Assembly: GCF_003584125.1 (NCBI RefSeq)
Contig: NZ_QXFL01000003.1
Location: forward strand, 434,001-498,000
Direction of reading: 5' to 3'
Source: Aurantiacibacter zhengii
GTDB lineage: Bacteria; Pseudomonadota; Alphaproteobacteria; Sphingomonadales; Sphingomonadaceae
Length of the DNA: 64,000 nucleotides
This document shows positions 1 to 17,063 of this stretch, one piece after another. Position 1 is the stretch's first letter. The number at the start of each line of letters is the position of its first letter. The notes beneath the pieces were generated by a model that was not told the DNA's origin, did no database searches, and was given only the letters and a program-made list of their open reading frames with translations. Made by a program: the position numbers and the translations under genes.

Positions 1-544
1 ACAGGAAGAGCAAGGTAGTTTCTGCCAGCTCGCGAAGTCCGTTCGCGACCTCCGCGAACGCTTCTGACTTGTCCTTCTTCGGATTGTTGAAGGGCAACCA
101 GAACCGCGTGATAGAGCGGTCAAGGTCGGGCCGCGCAATGGGCTCCGGCATGACAAGCCGCGAAATGCGGAAGGCGAAATCTCCGGATGTTATCTCCGGC
201 GCAACTGAGTAGACAAAAACCGACTTGAAGCCGACGCCGAACTTGCCGATCTGGTCGGTCGCTTTGTTCTTCGTGCTGTTGTGAATGCCGGTGATCGCAC
301 GAACGTCTGCTTCCGAAAACAGCCGCTTCCCGTCATGCTCGAAAATGCAACCGTCCTCACTCAACGTGAACGTGACCTCGGTCGCCTCTACATCTTCCGC
401 ATTCTGGAGAAGCTCGAAAACAAAATGGGCCTGGTCGGGGTAAAAATCCTCGAAAATATCTAGATTTATGTCACCCTCATTGGCATCCAGCCCCTCAAGG
501 AATTTCCTTCGCTGACCGGCGAGCTTTTCCAGAAAGTGGGACAT
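1..544 (-). CDS. GHKL (HATPase) family ATP-binding protein, sacsin-like, C-terminus outside window
   Basis: The reading frame starts at an ATG at 544 and runs off the left edge, so only about 181 N-terminal residues are seen. They contain a GHKL N-box (FVFELLQNAED, about residues 38-48) and a G-rich lid motif (DQIGKFGVGFKSVF, about residues 95-108), the ATP/Mg-binding signatures of Hsp90, MutL, MORC and sacsin-type ATPases. There is no signal peptide, so the protein should be cytosolic. The start overlaps the stop of the upstream helicase by one base (TGATG), so the two are translationally coupled. Families of large sacsin-like ATPases paired with helicases occur in bacterial defence loci; the role here is inferred from that pairing and the neighbourhood. 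The C-terminal effector domain is not visible. Confidence 0.8.
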   Translation of the reverse strand, partial: MSHFLEKLAGQRRKFLEGLDANEGDINLDIFEDFYPDQAHFVFELLQNAEDVEATEVTFTLSEDGCIFEHDGKRLFSEADVRAITGIHNSTKNKATDQIGKFGVGFKSVFVYSVAPEITSGDFAFRISRLVMPEPIARPDLDRSITRFWLPFNNPKKDKSEAFAEVANGLRELAETTLLFL

Positions 545-3500
545 CATGCGACCTCACGCACGCGGATCGTACCGAACATGACAGGCGCAGCTCTGACATC
601 GCCGGTCGATCCGGCCTGTTTGAGCTCGGCGAAACGGCGTTCGAAGTCGGCATTGGCGCGCGCCATCTCACCCTGTTTCATGACGCGAATTTTTTCGTTG
701 GTCGCCTTGGCGAGCTGGTCTTCCAGGGTCTTTACTCTTGCGCGGTGACTTACCGACAGACTTTGAATGCGATGGTCTGCAAGCTGCTGATTGGCCGCGA
801 TATGGTCGGCCTGTGCCGCCACCCACTTTGCATGATGGCGCTGGTCGAGATCGTCAAAGGCGAACGCGTACTCAGGAGTTCTGTCCGATAGCTCGCTAGC
901 GCTCGGGAGGGCGTTCATCAGCCCTTTTTCGAGTTCGGCATTATCGGCAACGACAACAAGCTGCTCGTCCGGCCTTATGCCATGCATGGCCCATCTATAG
1001 AGCGCGAAGCGATGTTCTCCGGCTGGCAGGTCCGCCGCGACTTCAAGACGGCAATGGAGGGGTTCGGTTACTTCAAGCCATCTGGCCGCCTGACGGACAA
1101 GCGGATGAAGAACAGACAAATGGACAGCAGTCGGGTTATCGGACGCAGCCTTTTGATCGAACGTAACTGGTAGGTTCGGCGCGCCCCCTTTGAGCCATTT
1201 CTCCCAATGGCGAGAAACAGGATCGACGCTCCGCTTCAGTTTCCTGAAGTCTTCGAGCAAGGTGTTGCGGGCTGCTTGGCTTAGGCGCAGGTTCTTGAGC
1301 GGTTTGTCGCCCTGAATATAGTCGGAGCTCTCACCGAGCTTCGTCGCCAGATAGGTGGCGACGCACCTCTGGACCGCATATGGCGATAGCCATGTACTTT
1401 CGGCAGCCTCGATTTCGTCTTGCCATGACTGGCTGGGGACATTGAGGCCAAAAAGCTCTGCCTCTTTGGACTCAAGTTCCTGCTCTTCCCTGATCTTGCG
1501 GATGCCGTTATCCGAAAGCTGCTGGAGCCGCGCGGCACGCTCTTCTTCGGAAAGGACAAAATTTTCCGCGATGTCGTGGATTTCCTGCGTGATCTCTCCG
1601 AGGATTTCCTCGCTGCCGCCAACCGCATGTTCAAAGACACCAATGCGCATAAGGCATCGCTGGTAGATGTCGGCATCGACCGTTCCAGGCGTGACGAGAT
1701 TGACGATGCTGATTGTTTCGCTTTCCTGCCCGTAGCGGTCGATACGGCCTATCCGCTGTTCCACACGCATGGGATTCCATGGCAGATCATAATTCACGAG
1801 ATAATCGCAGAATTGAAAGTCGAGACCTTCGCATCCAACTTCGGATGAAAGAAGGATGTCGATGGCATCTGGATCGTCTTTGGGAAGCGAGAAGCGCTTG
1901 CGAAGGGAGGCGCGCTCCTCATCGTGAATGTCGCCATGGATAACTCCGAAACGCAGGCCCGCTGCCTCGGTGTGCCTCGCTAGGTACGAAAGCGTGTGCC
2001 TAAAGGTGCTGAAGACGAGCGCTTTGTTATTCAAGAGAGCGGACTTCTCTTTCAGCGTTTTGATAAATGCCTCGATCTTCCTGTCTTCAGGATCGAGATT
2101 CTGCGCCATCCTGATCAGCTCCTCGATTTCGGCCCTGATGCCATCGAGAAAGCTCATGTCCATTTCATCGTCGCGATCGGTGGTTTCGATCAGTTCCAAC
2201 TGATCGAGTTTCCGGTCGAGCATGTCAGAGAGGAACGGTGCAAGTCCGTAGAGGCAGCTTGCAGCTTGACGCCGTATGGTCGTCATCATGAATTTGACGT
2301 TTTGTTGCCCGTGGCAACGCGCGAGAATACGCGCAATGACGCTCAGCAACCCATCATGTAGTGCGCGCTGATCTTCGGTAAACTCGACGGTGAGCGTGAC
2401 CGGTTTCCTTGTTGTGAATTCGCCAATATCACGGCGGCGGGTACGGTTTATGACCGAACTGAAGGTGTAGAGCTCTTCAAGCTGCCTGGTCAGGGCGACG
2501 CGATCGGCATCGCCCAAATCCGCTTCCTGGAGCTGGTCAAAGGCGGCTTGAAAACTCGGCATCTCGGAAAGGAAGAGCGATCCCCAGTCGGTCCTTGCCG
2601 CTGCTTCGAGCTGCTCGATGGCGCTGCCTTGCCAGCCATCACCCTTCTCGCGGCAGAGCCGTATCGACTCGTTAATGAACCTGTTGGGCGCGGCCATCTG
2701 CTCGAAGCTGGCATGGTCAATCACCAGATCGGGACGCAGCACATTCAGCAACGTGAAAAGGTCGTCACTGCCGAGCTGCACCGGAGTGGCCGTCATAAGA
2801 ATGACGGCCCGCGCATTGTCGCAAAAATATCGGACACCTTGATGCAGGAAGGTATCCGAGTTCCGAATGTGGTGCGCCTCATCGACGATCACGAGATCGA
2901 AAGCTGGAGCCGGATCAAGTGAAAGCAGCCCCTTATCCTTGCGTGACTTCTTGCCCGCCGGTCCGAAAATCAGGTCGGAATCGAATAGCGAGAATGGAAG
3001 GATCGCCTTTTCGTATTGCTCCGGCCACTCGCCCTCCAGGTCCGTTTCATGCAAACAGTGGCGCAGAAGCGGGCCGTCTAGGGGTGAAAAATTCTCGTCG
3101 AAGCGCTTCATTTCGGCTTGCCATTTTCTCTCGGCGACAAGCGCCTTCGGGCAGATGACGAGAATGGAGCTGATGTCCATCCTTGCCCGAAGCTCTTTGA
3201 TTATCAGACCGGCCTCGATGGTCTTACCGACACCGACTTCGTCGGCAATGAGCAAGCGCGGCCTGTCCGAGCGGATCAGCTTCAAGACAGGACGATACTG
3301 GTAGGGCACAAAATTTACGCGGCCTGACCGCAGGGAAAACAGGTTTGCGGTAGAGGGAGATAAAAGCTGCAATGCTGTCATATGCGCATGCAGCTCTTCG
3401 GTGGTAACCAGATCGGCCTCTGATCCGCCCTCATCCAAGGCTTGAAGCTGGCTCTCGTAGAATGTGGCCTTCACGCCATCCTGAAAAACACGGTAACGGA

Positions 3501-4149
3501 CCTCCGCGCCGCCGAGTAATACTTCGAGGATCGGGAGCCGCGCTGTAGTATCGGATCGTAATGTGACCAGATCGCCCGCTTCAAAAAGATGCGCTTTGCA
3601 CGCTGGTTCAGCTTCGGCGTCGGGTTTCAATTCCTCCGCTGGGTCTTCCTGCGCCGGTTTGGTTTGCCCTTCGGTCATTGCGCCGAGTGCTGAACCCTTA
3701 AGTGTTTCAACGGCTTCTATTGATTGAGGACCGGCCCCGATAAGCCGAAGCAATCGCCCCAACGTGTCAGCATCCCTATATACTTCGGCAGGAGGCGTAT
3801 CTTCAGCTGATAGATGAGCCCACTTATTTCTTATTGTTTGAAGCTCTTTGATCCAATTCCGCCCTTCACGCGGAAGAGCGAACCGATCTGATAGCTCGAA
3901 CCAGTTCTGATCGAAAATGCGCAGCAGTGCAGCGAGATCGAACTGTTGCAGGGAAGCTTGTCGCCTTTCGCTAGCAATACGTTGCTGATGGAAACTTAGC
4001 TTATTAATTACATGGCTTTGCCACCAGCCATCAGAACAAGAAGGGAGCTTCAGCTCGAGAAATTTCGCCAGTTCGCCGGTAGCGAGGCCTAGTTCTTTGT
4101 GCATGCGGTCGAGCACCCCCTTCAGCGCGAGCGTAGTTTCCCAAGTCAT
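544..4149 (-). CDS. SNF2/RapA-like helicase with N-terminal HEPN (Swt1-like) domain
   Basis: About 1,201 residues from the ATG at 4149; an in-frame TTG at 4164 is an alternative start. Residues 1-140 are helical and carry RNKWAH, an Rx4H motif of the kind that forms HEPN ribonuclease sites, resembling Swt1-type HEPN domains fused to prokaryotic helicases. An SF2 Snf2-type motor follows: Walker A ADEVGVGKT (about residue 303), DEAH box in VIVDEAHHIRN, motif III MTATP, and motif VI EQRIGRIDRYGQ, in the RapA/HepA arrangement. A long helical C-terminus ends the protein. It should translocate on duplex DNA using ATP; the HEPN part may cut RNA or only mediate binding. It is coupled to the HATPase gene downstream. 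Defence function is inferred from the fusion and from the surrounding restriction and reverse-transcriptase genes. Confidence 0.85.
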   Translation of the reverse strand: MTWETTLALKGVLDRMHKELGLATGELAKFLELKLPSCSDGWWQSHVINKLSFHQQRIASERRQASLQQFDLAALLRIFDQNWFELSDRFALPREGRNWIKELQTIRNKWAHLSAEDTPPAEVYRDADTLGRLLRLIGAGPQSIEAVETLKGSALGAMTEGQTKPAQEDPAEELKPDAEAEPACKAHLFEAGDLVTLRSDTTARLPILEVLLGGAEVRYRVFQDGVKATFYESQLQALDEGGSEADLVTTEELHAHMTALQLLSPSTANLFSLRSGRVNFVPYQYRPVLKLIRSDRPRLLIADEVGVGKTIEAGLIIKELRARMDISSILVICPKALVAERKWQAEMKRFDENFSPLDGPLLRHCLHETDLEGEWPEQYEKAILPFSLFDSDLIFGPAGKKSRKDKGLLSLDPAPAFDLVIVDEAHHIRNSDTFLHQGVRYFCDNARAVILMTATPVQLGSDDLFTLLNVLRPDLVIDHASFEQMAAPNRFINESIRLCREKGDGWQGSAIEQLEAAARTDWGSLFLSEMPSFQAAFDQLQEADLGDADRVALTRQLEELYTFSSVINRTRRRDIGEFTTRKPVTLTVEFTEDQRALHDGLLSVIARILARCHGQQNVKFMMTTIRRQAASCLYGLAPFLSDMLDRKLDQLELIETTDRDDEMDMSFLDGIRAEIEELIRMAQNLDPEDRKIEAFIKTLKEKSALLNNKALVFSTFRHTLSYLARHTEAAGLRFGVIHGDIHDEERASLRKRFSLPKDDPDAIDILLSSEVGCEGLDFQFCDYLVNYDLPWNPMRVEQRIGRIDRYGQESETISIVNLVTPGTVDADIYQRCLMRIGVFEHAVGGSEEILGEITQEIHDIAENFVLSEEERAARLQQLSDNGIRKIREEQELESKEAELFGLNVPSQSWQDEIEAAESTWLSPYAVQRCVATYLATKLGESSDYIQGDKPLKNLRLSQAARNTLLEDFRKLKRSVDPVSRHWEKWLKGGAPNLPVTFDQKAASDNPTAVHLSVLHPLVRQAARWLEVTEPLHCRLEVAADLPAGEHRFALYRWAMHGIRPDEQLVVVADNAELEKGLMNALPSASELSDRTPEYAFAFDDLDQRHHAKWVAAQADHIAANQQLADHRIQSLSVSHRARVKTLEDQLAKATNEKIRVMKQGEMARANADFERRFAELKQAGSTGDVRAAPVMFGTIRVREVA

Positions 4150-4260
4150 TATGGCCAAGCTCAAATGCTGGTTCTTTTGCCAATTTCGGCAATACGCTCA
4201 GTAGGATGTTCAGCCATTGTTTTCTGCGGATCTGAGTGTGATGCCTTCGAGGGCCGGGCG

Positions 4261-4724: not shown

Positions 4725-5540
4725 ATGGCAATCGAGGGCAGTTCACGGAAACGCTGGAGCGAAGAGGAGACGGTGCTCGCGCTCTATCTCTACTTCCAGC
4801 TGCCGTTCGGCAAGCTGCACTCGGGCAACCCAGAAATCCAGGAGCTCGCCGCTGCGCTCGGGCGCACAAACAGCTCGGTCGCGATGAAGCTTTGCAATTT
4901 CGCCAGCCTTGATCCAAAGATTACCGACAGCGGACGCAAAGGGCTGGACGGTGCATCCAAGCTGGATCGCGCCACCTATTCCGAATTCGGGCAGGACTGG
5001 ACCGGTCTCGTCTCGCGGGCGGAAGACTTGTGGACTGCCCAGGTCGGCCAGTTCGAGCCACCTCCCCCGCCGTCACGACTGAATGAGAAGCGAAGCGAAT
5101 TCCGGTTCGAGCCCTATCAAGGCGAGTCCACCACACAGGCACTCGTGAATCAGCGCGTTGGGCAGGATTTCTTCCGCCGCGCGGTGCTCGCCAATTACGA
5201 AGAGACTTGCTGCATGACCGGCATCGCCGATCCGCGCCTACTCACCGCAAGCCATATCAAGCCATGGGGCAAGGACAGCGACAACCGGCACAACCCCGCC
5301 AATGGCCTACTGCTTTCTGCGACACTCGACCGCGCCTTCGACCGCGGGCTCATCACGGTAGATCGCCAACGGCGCATACGCGTCTCGCGGCAATTGCGCG
5401 AAAGCCAGAGCCGCGAGACGCGCGACTATTTCCGGCAATTCGAAAACGCGACATTGCGTTCGGCAATCCGGTTCGATCCCGAACCGGCGTTTCTCGACTG
5501 GCACAACGAACACTGTTTCGTCGATCAACGCGCCGCCTGA
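4725..5540 (+). CDS. HNH endonuclease family protein
   Basis: 271 residues. The first half resembles a DNA-binding region (KRWSEEETVLALYLYFQLPFGKLH, split here only for description, then a stretch with ALGRTNSSVAMKL). The second half is an HNH module: YEETCCMTGI near residue 165, SHIKPW near 183 with the first catalytic His, and an NxxNGLLLSATLDRAFD segment near 196-210 with the central Asn and downstream Asp/Arg. This layout matches the restriction-type HNH nucleases found next to methylases and in defence islands. It has no partner methylase next to it. Its 3' end forms one arm of a perfect hairpin shared with the convergent DUF3768 operon. A cytosolic DNA nuclease is likely; its target is unknown. 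Confidence 0.8.
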   Translation: MAIEGSSRKRWSEEETVLALYLYFQLPFGKLHSGNPEIQELAAALGRTNSSVAMKLCNFASLDPKITDSGRKGLDGASKLDRATYSEFGQDWTGLVSRAEDLWTAQVGQFEPPPPPSRLNEKRSEFRFEPYQGESTTQALVNQRVGQDFFRRAVLANYEETCCMTGIADPRLLTASHIKPWGKDSDNRHNPANGLLLSATLDRAFDRGLITVDRQRRIRVSRQLRESQSRETRDYFRQFENATLRSAIRFDPEPAFLDWHNEHCFVDQRAA

Positions 5541-6780: not shown

Positions 6781-7060
6781 AGCCCTTGGAATTGGCCAAA
6801 GGGTGCGGTCGTTTACACTGTCAACCTGCAAGAGCGATATGATTACGGCGATGCCGTGGATCAGCCACTCTGCGAGTTGCAGCGGCGAGACTTCGATCTT
6901 CAACAATCGGACCTCCTCGACCATACAATACCACCTAGCGTTAACAGGCTCGCGTGGTTGCATTTGCGAGAAGGCAACCACGGATGGTGGCGTGCCTCTG
7001 GGGGGTCTAGCGGCGCCAGCCGGGTTCAGAGCCAGAACTATCCCCCAGAGACTGCTAGAA
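6781..7060 (+). ncRNA. DRT2-type template noncoding RNA
   Basis: A structured stretch of about 280 bases directly upstream of the reverse transcriptase. Stem-loops seen by eye: 6783-6789 with 6796-6803 (one bulge); a long-range stem 6818-6825 with 6940-6947 (one mismatch) closing a loop of about 114 bases; ACGGC/GCCGT at 6845-6857 inside that loop; a perfect 8-bp stem 6954-6961/6974-6981; and a perfect 9-bp stem 6996-7004/7042-7050 just before the RT start. ACA triplets lie at 6815-6817, immediately outside the long-range stem, and at 6944-6946 inside its 3' arm. Known DRT2 systems use such an upstream RNA as the template for rolling-circle cDNA with template jumping at ACA. The ends are estimates. 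Confidence 0.7.
6815..6946 (-). other. Predicted 129-nt cDNA repeat unit encoding a never-ending (Neo-type) ORF
   Basis: If reverse transcription runs from 6946 to 6815 and jumps from one ACA to the other, the cDNA repeats every 129 bases, exactly 43 codons. Read on the minus strand, the frame through ATG 6924 has no stop in the unit and stays open across the junction (codons GTT AAC formed at the join). The unit translates as MVEEVRLLKIEVSPLQLAE, WLIHGIAVIISLLQVDSV, NARWYC and then M again, a mostly helical, hydrophobic peptide. The junction creates TTGACA, a 17-bp spacer and TGGTATTGT (extended -10). GAGGAGG (6918-6912) lies 5 or 8 bases before in-frame TTG codons, and AGGTGG lies 6 bases before the ATG. 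None of this is expressed from the genomic copy as it stands. Confidence 0.65.
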
Positions 7061-7070
7061 ATGAGGGGGG

Positions 7071-8309
7071 ATGGCAAAGCCGACTTGGTTCAAGCCGCGC
7101 AGGTATCGGCACTTCGATGTGCCTATAGGGAGTGAGTGGGCAACCACACTCACGCCGGAGCAGGTTGTCGCCCACCCGTGGTCCCCGCTGCTGCATTGGA
7201 TCAAAGAAACACCGCGCTATCGACCGCTGGACGGCAAGACAGTGGTCAAGGAGCGTGACATCATGCACGCCTCGCACCGCGATGCATGCATCCTATCCAA
7301 GTACTCGCACGAGCTAACCGGCAGGTTGGATGCGTGGTATGCGGCAAACGGGCTGCATGAGGCGGTCATAGCCTACCGCTCCCTCAGAAAATCCAACTAC
7401 CATTTCGCCGCCACCGCACAGACCTATGTGCGCGACCACGATTCGGTCGAGGCCATGTGCTTCGACGTGACCGGCTTCTTCGACAATATCGACCACAACC
7501 GGCTGAAGCAGCGGCTCAAGTGGCTGCTCGCCGTCGATGAACTCCCCGATGATTGGCACCGGGTGCTGCGTTCCGTCACCCGGTATAGCCATGTCAGCAA
7601 GGCGGATTTGAAGGCCCATCCCGTATTTGGGTTGCGGCTGAAACAGCGCGGCGCTGATCGCCCAATAGCGACGGTCAAGGAATTGAAGGCGGCGGGTATC
7701 CCGATCCAGACAAACGGCACGGGAATAGGCGTCCCGCAAGGTACGCCCATCAGCGCCAGTCTATCCAACCTTTACATGGCCGATTTTGACCTGACGATGA
7801 AGGCGCTGGCAGATAAGCATGGCGCGCTCTATCAGCGATATTCCGACGATATTCTTATCATTTGCGCCCCTGAACACGCCGATCAGCTAGGCGCTGCCGT
7901 GGCCGACGCGCTCACCAACGAAGCTTTGCAACTTCAGAATGACAAGACCATTCGCCAACGCTTCACTGGGGATGAGCGGGACAACTTCCAGTATCTCGGT
8001 TTCCAACTTGGCCTGGGCCCGGCTTTGGTCCGGCCCGGCTCCCTTTCAAGGCAGTGGCGCTCCGCAAAAAGAGCCATTCGCCGCTCTGAACGAAAGGCCG
8101 AAAGATTGGCGAAGGCCGGTCAGAAAGACAAAATCTACACCAGCAAGTTGCGCGGGCGATTGACCCATGTAGGGCTTCGCAACTTCTTGGCCTATGCTGA
8201 TCGTTCTTCCGATGAACTCCAAAGCGAATCCATCAACCGACAGGTGAAGGCACTGCGGAAATTCGCCTTGCGCGGGTTGGCTCGGGTAAAAGCCATCAAG
8301 AATAGCTAG
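7071..8309 (+). CDS. drt2: Antiviral reverse transcriptase, DRT2 (UG2) type
   Basis: 412 residues from an ATG preceded by GAGGGGGG. The polymerase motifs are complete: motif A FDVTGFFDNID (Asp132), motif B GVPQGTPISASLSNLYM (220-236), motif C YSDD (257-260) with both catalytic Asp residues, and a thumb region with FQYLGFQLG. The N-terminus TWFKPRRYRHFDVP, then RDIMHASHRDACILSKYS and GLHEAVIAYRSLRKSNY, match from memory the conserved N-terminal blocks of DRT2 proteins rather than group II intron or retron enzymes. There is no maturase, protease or nuclease domain, as expected for that family. In described systems the enzyme copies its upstream RNA into concatemeric DNA that, after phage infection, yields a repetitive toxic ORF. 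It converges with the RM operon, 27 bp away. Confidence 0.85.
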   Translation: MAKPTWFKPRRYRHFDVPIGSEWATTLTPEQVVAHPWSPLLHWIKETPRYRPLDGKTVVKERDIMHASHRDACILSKYSHELTGRLDAWYAANGLHEAVIAYRSLRKSNYHFAATAQTYVRDHDSVEAMCFDVTGFFDNIDHNRLKQRLKWLLAVDELPDDWHRVLRSVTRYSHVSKADLKAHPVFGLRLKQRGADRPIATVKELKAAGIPIQTNGTGIGVPQGTPISASLSNLYMADFDLTMKALADKHGALYQRYSDDILIICAPEHADQLGAAVADALTNEALQLQNDKTIRQRFTGDERDNFQYLGFQLGLGPALVRPGSLSRQWRSAKRAIRRSERKAERLAKAGQKDKIYTSKLRGRLTHVGLRNFLAYADRSSDELQSESINRQVKALRKFALRGLARVKAIKNS

Positions 8310-8336: not shown

Positions 8337-10907
8337 CTAAGCGTCAGATTCCTTCGCGACCACAGTGTCATACAAACCGTAGTGCGTCAGTCCTTCGTGG
8401 CTCTCGATGCCGGTATAGCGCAATGACGCATCCTCATAGCGGCGGAACGCGAAAACCGCTTCGTTCATACGCTCGGTGTTGAATACGCGAAGGCGAACAA
8501 GCAGATGGAAATCCGCCACCGTCAGGCCAGTGACAGCGTGGAACAGGTCCGGTTCCAGCTTGGTAATCACGTCCTGTAGCTTGTTTTCCCGGAAATCGGT
8601 CAGGTACATGAAGGCCGGGATGCGCGTGGCAAACTTTATCAGCTTTTCCTGAACCAGCTTGCGCTTGGTCTTGAACTCCTTTTCCTCGGCGGTCAGTTCC
8701 TTCTTCTCTTTCGGGGTTAGCTCCCCATCATTGGCTTTAGCCTTGTCCTTGATTTCCTTAATCTTCTCGCTCTTGTTGATGATCGTCTCGATGATGTTGT
8801 CACCCAGTGCGCGCCAACCTTCGATCCGCTCAACAGCGGCCATTGCTTCGGGGTTTTCGAGAACGCGCCGCAACGTGTCGTTGTCCACGTTAACCAGCAT
8901 GGCCGATTCCCATTTGCGGGCCAGCAGCGTCGCAGACGTTCCCGCCATCGCAATATCAAGGATGCCGCCTGCGTCGATCTGCATCATCTTCGCGCCGTCA
9001 TAGGCCAGTACGGGCAGGAAAGAGACAAGCTCCTTCACGGCGTTTTCCGGGTTCGCTTCTCCAGGCGAAAGGCCGATGCCATATTCCGACAACTGCCGCA
9101 GCGCCCTAGTCGGGGCAAAATCAAACACGAAGCAGACAGGCTTGATGATTTCTTCCTCGTTCGGATTGTCGCCATTGGGATTCTTGATCGACCAGGGCGA
9201 CTGCACTCGGAATGCCGCCTGAAAATACGTCTCCGGCGATTGAAGATTGCGAAGCATCAGGATTGAGGACCATTGCTTGACCGTCACCCCGGTGGTCAGC
9301 TTGCCACAGGAAAGCGTGATGGTCTTGGTATCGAACCCGCTGCCAACCTTGTCCCGAACGGGCGGCAAGGCATCAAGGCCGATGCCTGCCGACGCCCCTG
9401 CCGCCACGATCACCTGATAATCGTGCCAGAAGGTGTTGTGCTTCTCTTCCAGCAAGTTCGCCATCGCATGGCAGGCGGCGACATTGGGCAGGAACCAGAA
9501 GCTGTGCTGCAAATGAGGCAGCAGCCTTGTGTCGGAATAGGGCCATGGCGGAACAACGCCGGTCTTGATGCTGTCGAATGATCGCGGTGCATCGGGCGAG
9601 TTGCGAATGACGTTGAGCCATTTCTGCACCTCGTCCTTGTGCTTGAACTGCGCGAGAACGCCCGTGCCATTCGCAGCGAAGAACTCATTGAGGTCAAATT
9701 CATCCAGCTCGCCGCCGCTGGCAATGTGGGTGATCTCCGGCGGCATCTGGTAAGTCAGCAGACGCATTTGCGGCAATGCGCCATAGGGATTGCGATGCGC
9801 CGGATGCTGTGCGGCAAATTCCTCTTTGGCGCGCTGCTCGTCCGTATAAGTCCAGTTGAATATCTGCTCTTCGATGAACTCGCCCGTGGCCAGCGCCTTG
9901 AAGGGTGTGCCGGAGAGGTAGAGATAAGCCCGCGTCGTGATCGGTAGAAATTCGGTTTCGCTTTCCGACATGACGCCAAGGTCTTCGTTCACATCGTCCA
10001 GACCATCTGCGTACTCCAGCTTGGCTTCCTTCTTAGCCTCGCCTGCATCCTCGCCCTCGAAAAGCTCCTTAGCCGTCTCGCGCCATGCGCCGAAATGATA
10101 TTCGTCGAACACGACCAAATCCCAGTTGATCGTGTGGAGCCATTCGTTGCGGGCTTTGATATTACCGGCCTTGTCACGCCCCAGCAGGTCTTGGAACGAG
10201 CCAAAATAGACCACCGGCTTATCATCGTCGATCTGGCTGGGATCGCGCCCGGAATTGCGGGAGAGATACTGCCACCCGTCGAAATCGACATGAGATTCAA
10301 GGTCAGTCTGCCAGGCATCCTCAACAGCAGGCTTGAAGGTCAGAACCAGAACCCGCTTCGCGCCAAGTTTCTTGGCAAGCTGATAGCTGGTGAAGGTCTT
10401 GCCGAAACGCATCTTGGCATTCCACAGAAAGCGGGGAACGGCATTGGCATCCTGCTGCCAGCGCGAATGGTAATAGGCGTAGGTCTGCTCGACCGCTTCC
10501 AACTGCTCCTTGCGCGGCGGAAAGTCCTCGTGGTGCGTGCCGGTGAATTGCTGCCCGCTGCGCAGTTCGGCCAGCACGGTTTTCACATCGGCCAGTGAAC
10601 ATCGCATCCATTCGAGCTGCGGATTGGCAAAGCCCTTGCGCCTGAGCGCATCACGCACAGCATGATCGGTGATAATGCCCCCGTCATCACGCTCCGCGCA
10701 TTCGTCCAGCTCGATGGTGTAGTTGGTGATCGCAGCGGTCTTGAGCTGCTCGGCAATCCGCTGCTTAACATCGCGCGTGGTCTGCCCAACCTTGAGCATC
10801 CCAGCGTGAGCATCGTCCGCAATCGCGTAAGCGTAAATGCGCGGGCGAGCTACGGGCTTTGGGGTGAGAATTTCATCAACTGAAGGCTTTTTCAGAGATA
10901 GATTCAT
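8337..10907 (-). CDS. Restriction-type SF2 helicase with N-terminal GIY-YIG-like domain
   Basis: 856 residues. Residues 22-55 (RIYAYAIADDAHAG, MLKVGQTTRDVKQRI) resemble the T5orf172/GIY-YIG nuclease core. A DEAD/DEAH-like motor follows with Walker A MRFGKT (166-171), the DEYH box near residue 260, and motif III LSGTPFKA. The C-terminal half contains CGKLTTGVTVKQW and ETYFQAAFRVQSPW, corresponding to helicase motifs V and VI. It is the last gene of a three-gene operon; its ATG overlaps the stop of the methylase gene by 4 bases. It is the likely restriction subunit, combining translocation with DNA cleavage. GIY-YIG assignment is by pattern only. Type I-like or ISP-like classification cannot be settled from sequence alone. 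Confidence 0.8.
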   Translation of the reverse strand: MNLSLKKPSVDEILTPKPVARPRIYAYAIADDAHAGMLKVGQTTRDVKQRIAEQLKTAAITNYTIELDECAERDDGGIITDHAVRDALRRKGFANPQLEWMRCSLADVKTVLAELRSGQQFTGTHHEDFPPRKEQLEAVEQTYAYYHSRWQQDANAVPRFLWNAKMRFGKTFTSYQLAKKLGAKRVLVLTFKPAVEDAWQTDLESHVDFDGWQYLSRNSGRDPSQIDDDKPVVYFGSFQDLLGRDKAGNIKARNEWLHTINWDLVVFDEYHFGAWRETAKELFEGEDAGEAKKEAKLEYADGLDDVNEDLGVMSESETEFLPITTRAYLYLSGTPFKALATGEFIEEQIFNWTYTDEQRAKEEFAAQHPAHRNPYGALPQMRLLTYQMPPEITHIASGGELDEFDLNEFFAANGTGVLAQFKHKDEVQKWLNVIRNSPDAPRSFDSIKTGVVPPWPYSDTRLLPHLQHSFWFLPNVAACHAMANLLEEKHNTFWHDYQVIVAAGASAGIGLDALPPVRDKVGSGFDTKTITLSCGKLTTGVTVKQWSSILMLRNLQSPETYFQAAFRVQSPWSIKNPNGDNPNEEEIIKPVCFVFDFAPTRALRQLSEYGIGLSPGEANPENAVKELVSFLPVLAYDGAKMMQIDAGGILDIAMAGTSATLLARKWESAMLVNVDNDTLRRVLENPEAMAAVERIEGWRALGDNIIETIINKSEKIKEIKDKAKANDGELTPKEKKELTAEEKEFKTKRKLVQEKLIKFATRIPAFMYLTDFRENKLQDVITKLEPDLFHAVTGLTVADFHLLVRLRVFNTERMNEAVFAFRRYEDASLRYTGIESHEGLTHYGLYDTVVAKESDA

Positions 10908-12478
10908 GCGCCAATTTCCATCGGCCTGATGACTGTTTCGACGTATTCGATCTCGGCTTCGGTAAGACCATACTTTTCGTAGAGCGCAGCATCAGTCCAT
11001 TCGCGGTCCCAGCATTGTTGTGGAACCCACGAATACATCGGACGGAACGCATCCTGTGTAATCTTCCTCAAAGAAACGAGAAGCCGAAAGAACTTCGTCG
11101 AGTAGTAGCTCAAAATGCTTTTCGCCTCCTCCTCCGAGTCACAGAAGAAAAACAGGTAAGAGCCTGTGCATACGGATGGTGGTCCAGCAACAATAGGCTT
11201 GCCAAGAACCATTGCGGGGATCGCCCCACGTTCGCCGTAGGCTTTCGGGACCAGAATCTTCCAATTATCAATTAAATGCGCATTCTTTTCAATCGACCCG
11301 CGGGCCATGTATCCGACGCTTCGGTTCCCCTTATCGGTATAATAGATCGAGATATCGCCTGCCTTCGTATCTTTACTAAAGTCCCTAAAGTTCGACTCCA
11401 TCTTAAATGGTTCACGATTGGTCAGTATATCGGATATTGAAGGTTCACCGCGAGAAATAACCTTGTCGAGTATTCCTACTGCCACATGATCTCTAATGAA
11501 AATATCGTAAGCACCTAATTCGCGCTTCACTGTAGGCATCTGAGTTTCGCCTTGAAACAAAGTGTATTCACAAGGCCCCTCATACTTCTGATCGTAGAGG
11601 AAATACTGAACGCCTCCTTCAAAATCCACACCGGGGAATGCTGTGGACATTTTTGTATAGTCAATAAGATGTCGAATATGTCCACCATTGAGCATCTTCG
11701 ATCGAAAATCGTCCATTCCACGCCCGCCCGCTAGCCAACGAGATGGAATGACCATGCTGACAAAACGTGCATCCAGATTGAGAGCTTGCTCGACGAAGAG
11801 ATGATAGATGGAAGAATCGCTCGAACCGCCAGCACCGCCAGTCATTTGGTAGGGGGGATTTCCAATAATGACGTCAAATTGCATGTCGGCTCCGAACAGC
11901 TCGCCGATGCGAGCCTTTATGTCGCTAGTGTGGATGAAGGCGTAGGCGTGGTTCTCTAGCTCCGGCTCGCGGTCAAAGAGCGCGCGCGGAGCACCACAAA
12001 ATGAACACTTGGCACCATCCCAATCGTGCTCGGTCCGTTCGAACCAGACATTGCCATCGTCATTGGCAAATCCCGTTGCAACGGAATGCTCCCCGGTCGC
12101 ATGCTTGGAGCAATAGAGGCTTCGGCGCGCCAGCAGGCTGGTAAGCCGGGTGATGCCGATCCCGAAAACCTGCTGCGTCAGGATATGGTCAACGCGGGTC
12201 TGCAAATCCGGGATTTCGGTTTCCAAGCCAGCGATCAACCGCTTGGCGATCTCCCGCAGAAAGACGCCGGATTTCGTGAACGGGTCCAGAAACCTGACCG
12301 AACTGTCCGCCCAGATGTTTGCGCCCTCGTTGTCCGCCGCCCATGCCTCTGCCAGCGTATCCAGCATCCGGTTGGCGAACTCCGGTGGCGTAAACACCTC
12401 GTCGTTTGACAGGTTGGCGATGCAGGTCAGCACATCGGGGTTGCGCCCGCGCAGCGCAAAGCTGGCCTGTTCAATCAT
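10904..12478 (-). CDS. Eco57I-type N6-adenine DNA methyltransferase
   Basis: 524 residues. A motif I variant FLDPFTKSGVF (63-73) gives SAM binding and NPPY (207-210) is the catalytic motif IV of N6-adenine methylases. CSFC near residue 158 could form half of a metal site. The C-terminal 250 residues look like a target-recognition region and are AT-richer than the rest, a common sign of specificity-domain exchange. The gene overlaps both neighbours by 4 bases (ATGA), so all three RM genes are translated together. Expected role: methylating host sites so that the GIY-YIG/helicase protein attacks only unmodified DNA. Confidence 0.85.
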   Translation of the reverse strand: MIEQASFALRGRNPDVLTCIANLSNDEVFTPPEFANRMLDTLAEAWAADNEGANIWADSSVRFLDPFTKSGVFLREIAKRLIAGLETEIPDLQTRVDHILTQQVFGIGITRLTSLLARRSLYCSKHATGEHSVATGFANDDGNVWFERTEHDWDGAKCSFCGAPRALFDREPELENHAYAFIHTSDIKARIGELFGADMQFDVIIGNPPYQMTGGAGGSSDSSIYHLFVEQALNLDARFVSMVIPSRWLAGGRGMDDFRSKMLNGGHIRHLIDYTKMSTAFPGVDFEGGVQYFLYDQKYEGPCEYTLFQGETQMPTVKRELGAYDIFIRDHVAVGILDKVISRGEPSISDILTNREPFKMESNFRDFSKDTKAGDISIYYTDKGNRSVGYMARGSIEKNAHLIDNWKILVPKAYGERGAIPAMVLGKPIVAGPPSVCTGSYLFFFCDSEEEAKSILSYYSTKFFRLLVSLRKITQDAFRPMYSWVPQQCWDREWTDAALYEKYGLTEAEIEYVETVIRPMEIGA

Positions 12479-13125
12479 GCGCTCGTCCCCGTTCCATTAT
12501 TCGCCGCCGCAAGATCGCGCACGCTCATCGGCGGATATGTCTGTGAAGGCGTGAATATCTCGTGCTTGCCCAATGACGAAAACAGGGAGTCTTCGGCGCT
12601 GAAACTCGCCATGCCAGTCAGGACATCAAGCCGGAAATCGCGGCGTTGGAATTTCCCTTTGCCCAGATAACCCCATTCGACCACGCGGATCGGCGCGTCA
12701 TCAATAGCGCGCATCGTCATGGCATCGCCATGCACGAGATTGAGCGAAAGAACGTGAGAGGCGGCACGATAAAGATCGTCATCCGTATCCAGCGCCAGAT
12801 AGTCCGCAAAAACCTCCAGCATATTGGCGCGACATTCCGCGATATTGTCGGCCAGCAACTCGATGCCATAGCAGCACATCAGGCCCAGCAGCGCATGATG
12901 ACGCTTCTCGAAGTCCGACTTGCCAAATTTCAATTCCACGGCGGCCAGCTTGCGTTGCAGGATCGGCACGAGGAAATTGCCGCTGCCACAGGCGGGTTCA
13001 AGAAAGCGGGAATCGATCCGCTCCGTCTCACCCTTCACGAGATCGAGCATCTTCTCGACCAGCCAGGGCGGTGTGAATACCTCCCCATGATCGGCAACGC
13101 GCTGCTTAGACTTGATTAGGGTCAT
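12475..13125 (-). CDS. N6-adenine methylase-like protein, short, without NPPY
   Basis: 216 residues. EVFTPPWLVEKMLDLV (15-30) is the usual segment before motif I in type I-like methylases, and FLEPACGSGNF (41-51) is a canonical SAM-binding motif I. GIELLADNIAECRANML follows as motif II/III. No NPPY or DPPY is present, so the product probably binds SAM or partners the next methylase rather than acting alone. The stop overlaps the start of the next gene by 4 bases. It is the first gene of the RM operon; a candidate promoter lies at 13174-13202. Similar split methylase pairs occur with GIY-YIG/DEAD restriction proteins. Confidence 0.8.
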   Translation of the reverse strand: MTLIKSKQRVADHGEVFTPPWLVEKMLDLVKGETERIDSRFLEPACGSGNFLVPILQRKLAAVELKFGKSDFEKRHHALLGLMCCYGIELLADNIAECRANMLEVFADYLALDTDDDLYRAASHVLSLNLVHGDAMTMRAIDDAPIRVVEWGYLGKGKFQRRDFRLDVLTGMASFSAEDSLFSSLGKHEIFTPSQTYPPMSVRDLAAANNGTGTSA

Positions 13126-14315: not shown

Positions 14316-17063
14316 TCAGCCCAACCCAGCACCCATTGCCTTTGACTTTCCGGCTTCGGGAGTACTCGCGGTAATGGCGGTCTGCTTCTCACCCGCACGC
14401 TCATAGATCGCGCGAACGAGCCGGTCCTTGTCGTCGGTGACAACGACGGCCTCGGCTTTGGCGCGCGACAGCGCGACATAGAGCATCTTCTGGTCGACCA
14501 GATTGGTGGAGCGGCTGTCGGCATGGATCAGGACACGTTCTGCGGTTTGGCCCTGGGCGGCGTGTGCGGTCTGGACGTAGGCATGGCGCAAATGAGTATC
14601 GCGAGGATCGGAGAGATCGAGCTTTTGCTCGCGCCCATTGGCGAGCTTTACGGTTGCCTGACCACGGTCGGAATCGATGCCGGTAACGGCACCGCCAAGG
14701 CCATTGACCCGTCCGGCGTCGCGGTCGTTGCGGGTGAACTGCACGCGGTCGCCGGTGCGCAGCTCCATCGGTTTCGGCTCGAACACCTCGACTTTGCCAG
14801 CACCCCACTGCCGGGGGTGCCAGTCCAGCGAACGCCCGCCGCTACCTTCCAGTGCGATGCGCCCGCGTTCGGGATCGACAGCGGCAATCGCAAAGCTTTC
14901 GCCCCGGCGCACGCCCTTGGCGGAATAATCCCGGCTGAACCGGACAACATCGCCGATGGCATAGCTTGCTGCCTCGCGCGCTTCGGCACGGGTCAGGCCC
15001 TTCGCCTCCAGTGCATCAAACCGCAACGCCTCCGCTGACAACTCGCCGCGCTCGGTCAGTTTCGCGCGGATCATGGCAGTGAGCCTGTCCCGGCCTTCGC
15101 GCGATGGTTCGATCACCAGCGTTCGGGCACGCTCTGAGGTGGACAAGGCAAGATAATGCCGGGCCATCGCTCCTAGGCGCTCGTCCGGTGTTGCGCCTTC
15201 GATCACCTTGCCGCCGCCACGTTCCAGCGCGGTCAGAGCCTTGCCTGCATGGCCTTCGATCGAAGCCATGACAGCTTCGCGGGTCCCGGCATTGGTCTGC
15301 CGGACCACTTCGGCAAGCTTTGCAGTCGCCATGCCTGCCTGCTGCAATTGTGCGAAGGCCGCCCCCGCGCCCACCGAACCCAACTGCTTCACGTCGCCGA
15401 CCAGAACAAGTCGGGCTTCGACCTTGTCGGCACGGGTCATGAGTTTTGCCACGTCGTGAGCCGAGAGCATCGAGGCCTCATCGACAATCCAGACGGCCTC
15501 CTTGCCGGTCTTCTTCACTTCTGGTGTGAGCAAATGCCGCGCTACGGTGTCACCGCGCAGACCGAGCGCTTCGCCGAGAACGGTTGCTGCCGATGCGGTC
15601 GGCGCAAGCGCGGTAACCGCAAGTCCGTGACGTCGTGCTTCGCGCGCGTAGGTGGCAAGCACGGTGGTGGTCTTGGCCGTCCCGGCATAGCCCTGAACGG
15701 CGGCGATGCGGTCACGCGAGGTGAGCAGGTCTGCGGTCGCTCGCTTCTGATCATCGGTCCAGGCATAGCCGGATCGGGCTGACTGCCGTGCAGTGCGCTC
15801 GATGGTTCGTGCCGCCGCCACCGGAGTGGCGAGCGATTGCGCCATGCCGCGCCCTGCCTCCTCAAGGCGAAGCATCGTTCGCTCTGTTTCGATAATCTGC
15901 GGCGTCGTGAACCCGGCAAACTCGGTCCCGCGCCGGTCCAGGAAAGTGCGCGGTACAAGCTCGCCGCGCTCTCCGGCCTCGGCAATCGCTGCACTGATTG
16001 CGCCGTGGCCAACCTTGCCAAAAGCAAAGTCCCCGGCCTCGCGCGCCAAAGTGCTAGCTGAGAACACCGCCTGACGCTCGGCCAGCTTGGCAGCAGCCCA
16101 GGCCACCGCCTGTCGCGCCAGCAATTCGGGGCTGGCGGTTGCTTCGCTGTTCTTGGACTGCTCTCTCGCTTCGCCGATAAGCTTTGCCCGCGCTGCCTTG
16201 TCAAACCCGTTGGCATCCGCAGTCGCCCGCCAGTCGGCGCGCAAGATACGGTGATCCGCACTGGTCTTGGCCTCCCGCGTATCGAGCGCGGCGATCTGCT
16301 TTTCGGCGGCGCTCGCGTGCTCGCGGCTCGTGCCGCGCTCGGCAAGCCGGGCATCGATCGCTGCCGTGCGCTGGCTCAGCGCGTCGATGGCCTTTTCCGG
16401 CACGCCTGCAATCTCGAACAGCGAGTCTTTTCCCGCTTCGATCCGATAACCCAGCGCAGCAACGCCGTGCGCCAGCTCCTGCCGGTAGATCGCGCCGATT
16501 TCCTTCTGCAATTGGTAGAATGCGCGCGGCTCCAGGCTGCGCCAGTTGCCATCCTTGTCCTGTGTTGCGTTGATGATCACACCGTGGGTGTGCAGCTGCG
16601 GGTCCTGCGCCCGGCTTGTGGCATGGCGGAAGGTGGCAATGGCAAGATTGCCGGTCGCTTCGCGCCGGACCTCGCCGCCCTGCCTGATGCGCGTCGCCGC
16701 CATGTGCTTTTCGACATGGACAAGCGCCACTTTCACCGCCGCACCATGCGCCTTGATCAGCCGCTTGTCTCCGGCCACCTCGGCCATGATCGAGACCGAC
16801 TTGGGCGCGGACAGGGTAATGTCCCAGCCTGGCCGGTGCTCTACCTTGCCATCGCGCGTGGTGCCCAGCTGCTGCCCGGCAACGCGGCCTTCGAGCAATT
16901 CAGCAAACTTCTCGCGATCGACCTCGCCCGACAGGCCCAGCTTCTCCGCTGCCTCGCCAAACCATTCGGACGGAGCCATGCCGCCTTCGGCATAGTAGTC
17001 GTCGGCTTCGTAGTAGCTCGCGGCCTGCCCGGCACTAGACAGGGCCGAGACCGAGGCGACCAC
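14316..17063 (-). CDS. traI: MobF-family conjugative relaxase/helicase
   Basis: 915 residues from a GTG that overlaps the traD stop by one base (TAGTG). The TrwC-type relaxase domain has paired tyrosines SYYEADDYY (17-24), APKSVSIM (86-93), and the metal-binding histidines in FRHATSRAQ and QLHTHGVIIN (147, 158, 160). A RecD/TraI-like helicase follows with VQGYAGTAKTTT (Walker A), VWIVDEASML (Walker B) and a UvrD_C-like end with YVALSRAKAE. It should nick oriT, stay covalently bound to the strand, and unwind it during transfer. It forms an operon with traD and the ribbon-helix-helix gene. The oriT-like repeats lie just upstream of that operon. Confidence 0.92.
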   Translation of the reverse strand: MVASVSALSSAGQAASYYEADDYYAEGGMAPSEWFGEAAEKLGLSGEVDREKFAELLEGRVAGQQLGTTRDGKVEHRPGWDITLSAPKSVSIMAEVAGDKRLIKAHGAAVKVALVHVEKHMAATRIRQGGEVRREATGNLAIATFRHATSRAQDPQLHTHGVIINATQDKDGNWRSLEPRAFYQLQKEIGAIYRQELAHGVAALGYRIEAGKDSLFEIAGVPEKAIDALSQRTAAIDARLAERGTSREHASAAEKQIAALDTREAKTSADHRILRADWRATADANGFDKAARAKLIGEAREQSKNSEATASPELLARQAVAWAAAKLAERQAVFSASTLAREAGDFAFGKVGHGAISAAIAEAGERGELVPRTFLDRRGTEFAGFTTPQIIETERTMLRLEEAGRGMAQSLATPVAAARTIERTARQSARSGYAWTDDQKRATADLLTSRDRIAAVQGYAGTAKTTTVLATYAREARRHGLAVTALAPTASAATVLGEALGLRGDTVARHLLTPEVKKTGKEAVWIVDEASMLSAHDVAKLMTRADKVEARLVLVGDVKQLGSVGAGAAFAQLQQAGMATAKLAEVVRQTNAGTREAVMASIEGHAGKALTALERGGGKVIEGATPDERLGAMARHYLALSTSERARTLVIEPSREGRDRLTAMIRAKLTERGELSAEALRFDALEAKGLTRAEAREAASYAIGDVVRFSRDYSAKGVRRGESFAIAAVDPERGRIALEGSGGRSLDWHPRQWGAGKVEVFEPKPMELRTGDRVQFTRNDRDAGRVNGLGGAVTGIDSDRGQATVKLANGREQKLDLSDPRDTHLRHAYVQTAHAAQGQTAERVLIHADSRSTNLVDQKMLYVALSRAKAEAVVVTDDKDRLVRAIYERAGEKQTAITASTPEAGKSKAMGAGLG

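What the first reader, a model, noticed from the sequence alone, without database searches (positions are those of the whole stretch)
6781..7060. A DRT2 template RNA with a computable Neo ORF: 129-nt stop-free repeat and junction-made promoter
Seen directly: ACA at 6815-6817 and 6944-6946; a stem 6818-6825/6940-6947 that places them together; a distance of exactly 129 (43 codons). Joining the minus strand at ACA gives an open frame across the junction (…VDSV|NARWYC|MVEEV…). The same join yields TTGACA + 17 bp + TGnTATTGT, a near-ideal extended -10 promoter not present in the genomic order, plus GAGGAGG 5 and 8 bases before in-frame TTG codons. Known: DRT2 makes concatemeric cDNA by rolling circle on an upstream RNA and expresses a stop-less ORF after infection. 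Inference: this locus does the same, with a new Neo sequence. The coincidence of ACA pairing, multiple-of-3 length, no stop and a promoter at the join is hard to get by chance.
Basis: partly seen in the sequence, partly recalled or inferred. Interest (0 to 1): 0.97.

Follow-up and report, generated by a model that had tools for sequence, protein, structure and literature searches.

The report
DRT2 with a swapped jump box
This bacterial locus encodes a DRT2-type reverse transcriptase beside an RNA template that is predicted to be copied round and round into a hidden repeat gene for a likely growth-arresting anti-phage protein; in 51 related loci the repeat length is always a multiple of three, and the copies are likely joined at GTT instead of the ACA known from Klebsiella.

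Summary
The RT at 7071-8309 is a divergent DRT2 (PADLOC Drt2 3e-117; best fold match a solved DRT2, TM 0.82). On one locus the open frame is weak evidence (48% of shuffles keep it). Comparison makes it strong. In 51 of 51 loci with RT identity of 40% or more, the unit is a multiple of 3 (66-132 nt), the same frame is open and the spacer is 17 bp; neighbouring ncRNA segments show no such rule. The conserved repeat is GTT (6811-6813 / 6940-6942), about 7 nt after the 5' handle, where gammaproteobacterial DRT2s have ACA. A covarying helix joins the ncRNA 3' end (7053-7057) to the template end (6936-6940), which would position it as primer. So this is a DRT2 variant with a different re-annealing box and a new Neo. 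cDNA synthesis, defence and toxicity are untested.

The parts
6783..6803 (+). 5' handle hairpin of the ncRNA (CCCUUGG..CCAAAGGG)
   Evidence: Consensus fold of 29 relatives has compensatory changes in this hairpin; pairs as drawn; the names 'handle', 'tower' and 'buttress' follow PMC12039810
6807..6811 (+). Left arm of the template helix (GGUCG), pairs with 6918-6922
   Evidence: 93.8% of cells paired, 19 cells changed on both sides, 0/500 shuffles reach the covariation score; slid versions far lower
6811..6813 (+). Left re-annealing box GTT, 7 nt after G6803
   Evidence: GTT on both sides in 47 of 51 loci, the other 4 differ in the last letter of one copy
6814..6942 (-). Template unit and predicted Neo repeat: 129 nt, 43 codons, read on the minus strand from the right box
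   Evidence: same frame open in 51 of 51 loci
6815..6817 (+).
6819..6824 (-). -35 element TTGACA of the junction promoter
   Evidence: 6/6 in 33 of 51 loci, 5/6 in 12
6901..6906 (-). Two in-frame TTG codons; the second (6901-6903) is where most relatives have ATG
6912..6918 (-). Shine-Dalgarno-like GAGGAGG on the cDNA strand
6918..6922 (+). Right arm of the template helix (CGACC)
6925..6930 (-). -10 element TATTGT (4/6) with TGG before it (extended -10)
   Evidence: 6/6 in 24 of 51 loci, 5/6 in 15, 4/6 in 11, 3/6 in 1
6936..6940 (+). Template-end strand of the primer helix (UAGCG), pairs with 7053-7057
   Evidence: 96.5% of cells paired, 15 cells changed on both sides (14 of them at one pair: CG, UA, AU), 0/500 shuffles reach the covariation score
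6940..6942 (+). Right re-annealing box GTT
6944..6946 (+).
6948..6993 (+). Covarying helix of the 3' domain (6948-6956/6979-6993), in the region of the Kpn buttress and pseudoknot
6996..7050 (+). Long covarying hairpin with side hairpins, likely the 'tower' domain
7053..7057 (+). Predicted ncRNA 3' end UGCUA; A7057 would be the RNA primer end (cf. Kpn A280)
   Evidence: the equation with A280 is inference from PMC12039810 section 4
7071..8309 (+). DRT2-branch reverse transcriptase, 412 aa, YSDD motif

Best explanation
This is a divergent DRT2 locus, likely an anti-phage system, whose upstream RNA (about 6783-7057) is predicted to be reverse-transcribed in repeated rounds into a tandem 129-nt cDNA that would carry a promoter across each join and an endless 43-codon Neo reading frame. 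Proposed steps: (1) The RT would bind the RNA through its 5' handle and 3' domain (domains shown by covariation; binding inferred from KpnDRT2). (2) The RNA 3' end UGCUA (7053-7057) pairs with the template end UAGCG (6936-6940) and would prime DNA synthesis opposite C6935 (helix shown by covariation; priming inferred). (3) The RT would copy leftwards to GTT at 6811-6813; the new AAC end would re-anneal to GTT at 6940-6942 and copying would go on (GTT repeat shown; jump inferred). (4) The join sets TTGACA 17 bp from TATTGT, with GAGGAGG and a TTG at the place of the relatives' ATG (shown in sequence; use inferred). (5) Transcription and translation would give a hydrophobic Neo, predicted to have two helices per repeat, that likely arrests growth of the infected cell (inferred from KpnDRT2).
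For: RT: PADLOC Drt2 3.4e-117; DRT2 chains 9lje and 9c0i E 7e-61; AlphaFold model best matched by 9c0i, TM 0.82 over the query, against at most 0.56 for the other 49 listed matches. Unit: 51 of 51 loci a multiple of 3 in seven lengths (66, 114, 120, 123, 126, 129, 132); at least 10 length changes on a quick RT tree with 41 of these loci; control segments of the same ncRNAs spread over all residue classes (6/22/14 of 42 and 12/20/3 of 35). Frame: 0 stops in 1778 codons of 42 distinct units against 71 and 87 in the other cDNA-strand frames; the 13 codons before the start are open in 42 of 42 (other frames 5 and 12 of 42), which a plain antisense ORF would not need. Promoter: spacer 17 in 51 of 51. 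Box: GTT/GTT in 47 of 51. Helices. Hydrophobic Neo: 32 of 39 distinct repeats have a 19-residue Kyte-Doolittle mean of 1.6 or more, 4% of shuffles; single-repeat model two helices, pLDDT 75, pTM 0.36.
Against: No cDNA, RNA or phage data. NCBIfam's Drt2 model scores 357 bits, under its cut-off of 390. No excess of third-codon-position changes between nine nearest pairs (71/54/57), so the amino-acid sequence itself shows no purifying selection beyond staying open and hydrophobic. In the central part alone a second cDNA-strand frame is open too in 39 of 41 units. For both helices two coarser measures (pairs changed on both sides, further pair types) do not exceed shuffles. The window starts with TTG where most relatives have ATG. 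Left and right box often differ in the base before GTT, and 4 of 51 loci differ in its last letter. In the window ACA also repeats in register, so the exact joining nucleotide cannot be told from sequence. In more distant loci the 7-nt box rule fails for L087 and L088 (145 nt) and finds no good promoter in five.
Confidence: 0.85

Rival explanations
1. The jump uses ACA at 6815/6944, as in KpnDRT2, exactly; the GTT repeat would be kept for RNA structure only.
For: ACA pair present in register in the window and L002; ACA/ACA units in gammaproteobacterial loci L049, L051, L053, L057 and, tied with another unit, L050; the resulting repeat has the same length and the same Neo protein.
Against: 2 of 51 loci have the pair, while length, frame and spacer rules hold in all 51. 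It lies 11 nt from the handle, where GTT lies 7 nt from it. Its proposed stem has no covariation.
Confidence: 0.2
2. The conserved frame is an ordinary small antisense gene on the genomic minus strand, not a gene made by template jumping.
For: The Neo repeat is contiguous on the minus strand (6814-6942). Annotated 'hypothetical proteins' beside two Rhizobiaceae DRT2s start at the conserved ATG place, 39 nt from the right box.
Against: The 13 codons 5' of the start are open in 42 of 42 units, against 5 and 12 in the other frames. The first in-frame stop in genomic order lies 5 to over 60 codons past the left box, so there is no conserved end. The -35 and -10 elements are in the wrong order in the genome and meet at 17 bp only after joining, in 51 of 51.
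Confidence: 0.04
3. The DRT2-like locus is a decayed or repurposed relative that makes cDNA without expressing Neo (for example a DNA-only product, as in DRT9 or DRT10).
For: TTG start and 4/6 -10 element in the window; RT under the NCBIfam cut-off; no codon-position signal.
Against: Frame, spacer and -35 are intact; the RT is full length and 96% identical to L002, whose predicted Neo repeat is identical.
Confidence: 0.09

Closest known systems
KpnDRT2 (Klebsiella pneumoniae DRT2; PMC12039810, PMC11100668)
   Same: RT fold, ncRNA directly upstream, 5' handle, template, structured 3' domain; unit a multiple of 3 (120 there, 129 here; 129 also occurs among its published relatives); 17-bp promoter made at the join; RBS and start codon; endless hydrophobic ORF.
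   Different: ACA flanks replaced by GTT in this clade; the ncRNA 3' end makes a 5-bp covarying helix with the template end, not described in the sections read; RT 31% identical to 9c0i over the model. Neo was not compared: no Kpn Neo sequence was at hand.
DRT10 (UG17; PMC12632851, section 8 read)
   Same: Tandem-repeat cDNA by re-annealing of A to A', where the sequence of A may differ between systems and the template lies next to a stem-loop.
   Different: 9-nt repeats in the system studied, protein-primed, no gene made; this RT scores 390 bits with Drt2 and 90 with UG17.
Telomerase alignment region
   Same: Repeat addition by re-annealing to a template-end copy (analogy drawn in PMC12039810, section 10).
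   Different: Different RNA, short repeat, no coding product.

Membership tests
DRT2 | RT of the Drt2/UG2 family | tested here: met
   Two Drt2 models first in PADLOC (3.4e-117, 1.8e-87), next family UG17 3.3e-26
DRT2 | NCBIfam Drt2 equivalog cut-off | tested here: not met
   357 bits against a cut-off of 390; an annotation threshold, not a mechanism; next model 77 bits
DRT2 | DRT2 RT fold | tested here: met
   Model pLDDT 87.5, 9c0i first with TM 0.82
DRT2 | ncRNA upstream with 5' handle, template and structured 3' domain | tested here: met
   53 consensus pairs, 36 with compensatory changes, 29 sequences
DRT2 | Pseudoknot in the 3' domain | not tested
   Nested folding only
DRT2 | ACA motifs flanking the template | tested here: inconclusive
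   Met in the window and L002, not met in the other 49 of 51 loci; GTT is repeated instead
DRT2 | Unit divisible by 3 with a stop-free frame through the join | tested here: met
   51 of 51
DRT2 | Promoter reconstituted at the join, 17-bp spacer | tested here: met
   spacer 17 in 51 of 51
DRT2 | Phage-triggered concatemeric cDNA | not testable with these tools
   Needs cells
DRT2 | RNA-primed synthesis from the ncRNA 3' end | not testable with these tools
   Covarying helix is consistent
DRT2 | Neo arrests growth | not testable with these tools
   Hydrophobicity only
DRT10 | UG17 RT with short A-B-A' template | tested here: not met
   UG17 90 bits against Drt2 390; 129-nt unit

The most novel reading that the evidence does not exclude
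In DRT2 the template-jump element is not ACA but any short repeat placed by a ruler: a box 7 nt after the core of the 5' handle and its copy at the template end drift together (GTT, GTTAACA, ACA, GTAA, TTG, ATTGCA, ATTAC), while unit length modulo 3 and a 17-18-bp junction spacer stay fixed. With this rule the divergent DRT2 clades whose Neo could not be annotated become readable, this large clade being set apart further by an ncRNA 3' end that clamps onto the template as its own primer and by a Neo with one membrane-like helix per repeat.
Probability: 0.6. Interest if true: 0.78.

Novelty: new variant of a known kind. Interest (0 to 1): 0.64.

Why it matters
[quoted passage not shown] Here a whole clade, the window included, reads as the same mechanism with another joining triplet, which turns that open question into exact predictions: unit, join, primer and Neo sequence for 42 distinct templates. 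Whether this clade is one of those meant in that paper I could not see. It also suggests that the joining element coevolves as a repeat, as in DRT10, so the sequence of ACA itself may not matter.

Tried and rejected
A hairpin UUGA/UCAA over the left box (6812-6815/6821-6824): 94% of cells paired but mostly invariant, 18 of 500 shuffles reach the score, so it adds little. Codon-position test for selection on Neo: negative. Viral contigs: 16 pattern matches, no relative. Rfam: no family reached its threshold in the 64-kb window. Held-out relatives: the family and class searches gave three new loci, L091-L093, but all were copies of L005, L043 and L039, so there is no held-out test. The first unit table was off by one or two bases in ten loci because it used a column next to an alignment gap; anchors on the box and replaces it.

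Rows left out before counting: L009 and L045 (no upstream sequence), L091-L093 (copies), plasmid hit H3 (a second record with the same coordinates as H2, not fetched), the 46 of 126 relatives that one search did not keep, and the non-clade loci (RT under 40% identity). Of the non-clade loci 19 were examined: 14 have a top unit with a promoter score of 9 or more of 12, of which 12 are a multiple of 3 and open (L050 and L090 with tied scores) and 2 are not (L087, L088); 5 give no such promoter (L056, L065, L068, L079, L089). L059, L060, L062, L064, L066, L067, L069, L070, L072-L077, L080 and L081 were not examined for boxes, and L052 and L054 only (ACA, 132 nt). A2 used 29 of the 51 loci. The 7-nt distance is counted from the core hairpin, by eye; the free-energy folds add outer pairs and leave 0-5 nt in most cases and 7 only in L047, L063 and L065. 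The consensus fold's outermost handle pair ends one base before G6803. One search imposed the 7 nt and has no chance rate.

Full report
What is there. The RT gene at 7071-8309 encodes 412 aa. Its best PADLOC family is Drt2 (3.4e-117), and by sequence its closest solved relatives are the DRT2 chains 9lje and 9c0i (E 7e-61; that these are the Klebsiella protein is recalled). An AlphaFold model from 25 sequences (mean pLDDT 87.5) matches 9c0i with TM 0.82 over the query, while the other 49 listed matches reach at most 0.56. NCBIfam's Drt2 model scores 357 bits, below its cut-off of 390, so this is a divergent branch. Relatives at E 1e-40 are rare: 4 of 396 genomes of the order and 2 of 397 of the family, the window's own counted in both.

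The observation. Every sequence fact of the finding holds: the two ACA, the 129-nt distance, the open cDNA-strand frame, the TTGACA-17-TATTGT promoter that appears only after joining, and GAGGAGG before two TTG codons. The proposed stem has 7 of 8 pairs. Its force on a single locus is limited, however. Two ncRNA-strand frames of the same tandem are also open, 47.6% of shuffles of the central region keep the Neo frame open, and an exhaustive scan finds several alternative units with good junction promoters in such sequences.

The comparison. A profile search of genome contigs kept the best 80 of 126 relatives; others came from plasmids and whole genomes. I took the fetched loci with an RT at least 40% identical to the window: 53 with the window, of which 2 (L009, L045) lack upstream sequence, leaving 51. 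L082 has the same RT as L004 and several templates are identical, so there are 42 distinct units. They were aligned, and the repeat ends were located from the alignment alone. The unit is a multiple of 3 in 51 of 51, in seven lengths (66, 114, 120, 123, 126, 129, 132). One and the same frame is stop-free in 51 of 51. Over the 42 distinct units that frame has 0 stops in 1778 codons; the other two cDNA-strand frames have 71 and 87, the ncRNA-strand frames 29, 21 and 151. About 22 of 41 units would be open if their central part were shuffled; in that central part a second cDNA-strand frame is also open in 39 of 41, so much of the contrast comes from the promoter and leader codons. On a quick RT tree with 41 of these loci at least 10 length changes are needed. 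As a control, two neighbouring segments of the same ncRNAs vary in length without regard to 3 (residue classes 0/1/2: 6/22/14 of 42 and 12/20/3 of 35), against 42/0/0 for the template. The junction spacer is 17 bp in 51 of 51; the -35 is 6/6 in 33 and 5/6 in 12; the -10 is 6/6 in 24 and 5/6 in 15. A start codon behind a GGAGG-like site was found by script in 35 of 42 units: ATG at nt 39 in 33, GTG there in one, TTG in the window.

What joins the repeat. The published element is ACA on both sides (PMC12039810 section 4; PMC11100668 section 7). In this clade an ACA pair in register occurs only in the window and L002 (2 of 51). What is repeated in register is GTT: 47 of 51 have GTT on both sides, two GTT/GTA, two GTC/GTT. 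In the window these are 6811-6813 and 6940-6942. GTT stands 7 nt after G6803, the end of the 5' handle as drawn. Counted by eye from the core hairpin, ACA stands at the same distance in gammaproteobacterial DRT2s (sequences; the free-energy folds there add outer pairs and leave fewer bases). When a 7-nt gap was imposed and no multiple of 3 asked for, 19 more distant loci gave 14 with a junction promoter of 9 or more of 12 matches; in 12 of these the top unit is a multiple of 3 and open, with boxes such as GTTAACA (Geomonas, L047), GTAA (L084), ATTGCA, ATTAC and TTG (Dyella, L063, L078, L058; spacer 18) and ACA (L049, L051, L053, L057); L087 and L088 do not fit. That scan has no chance rate, so the general rule is suggestive and the clade result is firm. 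For the window, a jump at GTT or at ACA gives the same length and the same protein; the two differ in one silent base (GTA or GTT, both Val).

RNA structure. The consensus fold of 29 relatives has 53 pairs, 36 with changes on both sides. The helix 6807-6811/6918-6922 is well supported (93.8% paired, 19 double-changed cells, covariation score reached by 0 of 500 shuffles); it is the likely counterpart of Kpn's 'template hairpin' next to the -10. A second helix, not mentioned in the sections read, links the template end 6936-6940 (UAGCG) to 7053-7057 (UGCUA): 96.5% paired, 15 double-changed cells, covariation score reached by 0 of 500 shuffles, with UAGCG/UGCUA, UCGCG/UGCGA and UUGCG/UGCAA alternating. 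For both helices the number of pairs changed on both sides and of pair types does not exceed shuffles. In KpnDRT2 the ncRNA 3' end A280 carries the DNA primer (PMC12039810 section 4). By analogy A7057 would prime here, and the first DNA would be GGTGG. That is inference.

Neo. The predicted repeat is contiguous on the minus strand (6814-6942). The mean hydropathy of the 42 distinct units is 0.68 in this frame, above every other frame. Of 39 distinct repeats, 32 have a 19-residue window of 1.6 or more, against 4% of shuffles (the 1.6 yardstick is recalled). A model from 33 single repeats shows two helices at pLDDT 75 and pTM 0.36, in line with the paired helices described for other Neo proteins (PMC11100668 section 10; PMC12039810 got only low-confidence models). 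A membrane-inserted Neo is therefore conceivable but untested. Codon-position counts show no third-position excess (71/54/57 in nine nearest pairs): what is kept is openness and hydrophobicity more than the exact sequence.

Rivals. A plain antisense gene would not need its 13 codons before the start to be open (42 of 42 here; 5 and 12 of 42 in the other frames), and no common stop exists in genomic order. ACA as the real joint in the window alone cannot be excluded by sequence.

Known and new. The mechanism is that of DRT2; the idea that the re-annealing sequence may vary between systems is published for DRT10 (PMC12632851 section 8). I found no paper describing DRT2 with another box than ACA: searches and 99 of an open-licence library. 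Of the papers I read PMC12039810 sections 4, 10 and 23 plus passages; PMC11100668 sections 7 and 10, the first part of the legends and passages; PMC12632851 section 8 and passages; the abstract and passages of PMC12596737; passages of PMC12483538. No supplements were read, so the divergent clades shown there were not seen.

Noticed in passing
window 544-4164 (-), 4725-5540 (+), 8337-13125 (-): Neighbours look like a defence island: a DrmD-like SNF2 helicase with an N-terminal HEPN_Swt1 domain, an HNH nuclease, and three genes resembling a split type IIG restriction-modification system.
   Followed up: partly
window 14316-17063 (-): MobF-family relaxase/helicase (TraI-like) next to the island, so the locus probably sits on a conjugative element.
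   Followed up: no
L085 2174-2308 (-), L086 2177-2305 (-): Annotated 'hypothetical proteins' beside two Rhizobiaceae DRT2 genes begin at the conserved ATG of the Neo frame: gene callers mistake part of the hidden template for an ordinary gene.
   Followed up: partly
L039 upstream of its RT (4776-4841): The shortest unit, 66 nt (22 codons), still a multiple of 3 and open, with a TATAAT -10: a possible minimal Neo.
   Followed up: partly
L061: RT reading frame appears broken (7 stops in the matched stretch) while the template and Neo frame stay open.
   Followed up: no
L088 (Nitratidesulfovibrio plasmid): ACTG boxes at the 7-nt position with a 12/12 junction promoter but a 145-nt unit, not a multiple of 3; a TTGA join would give 144 nt with a 16-bp spacer. 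Unexplained.
   Followed up: partly
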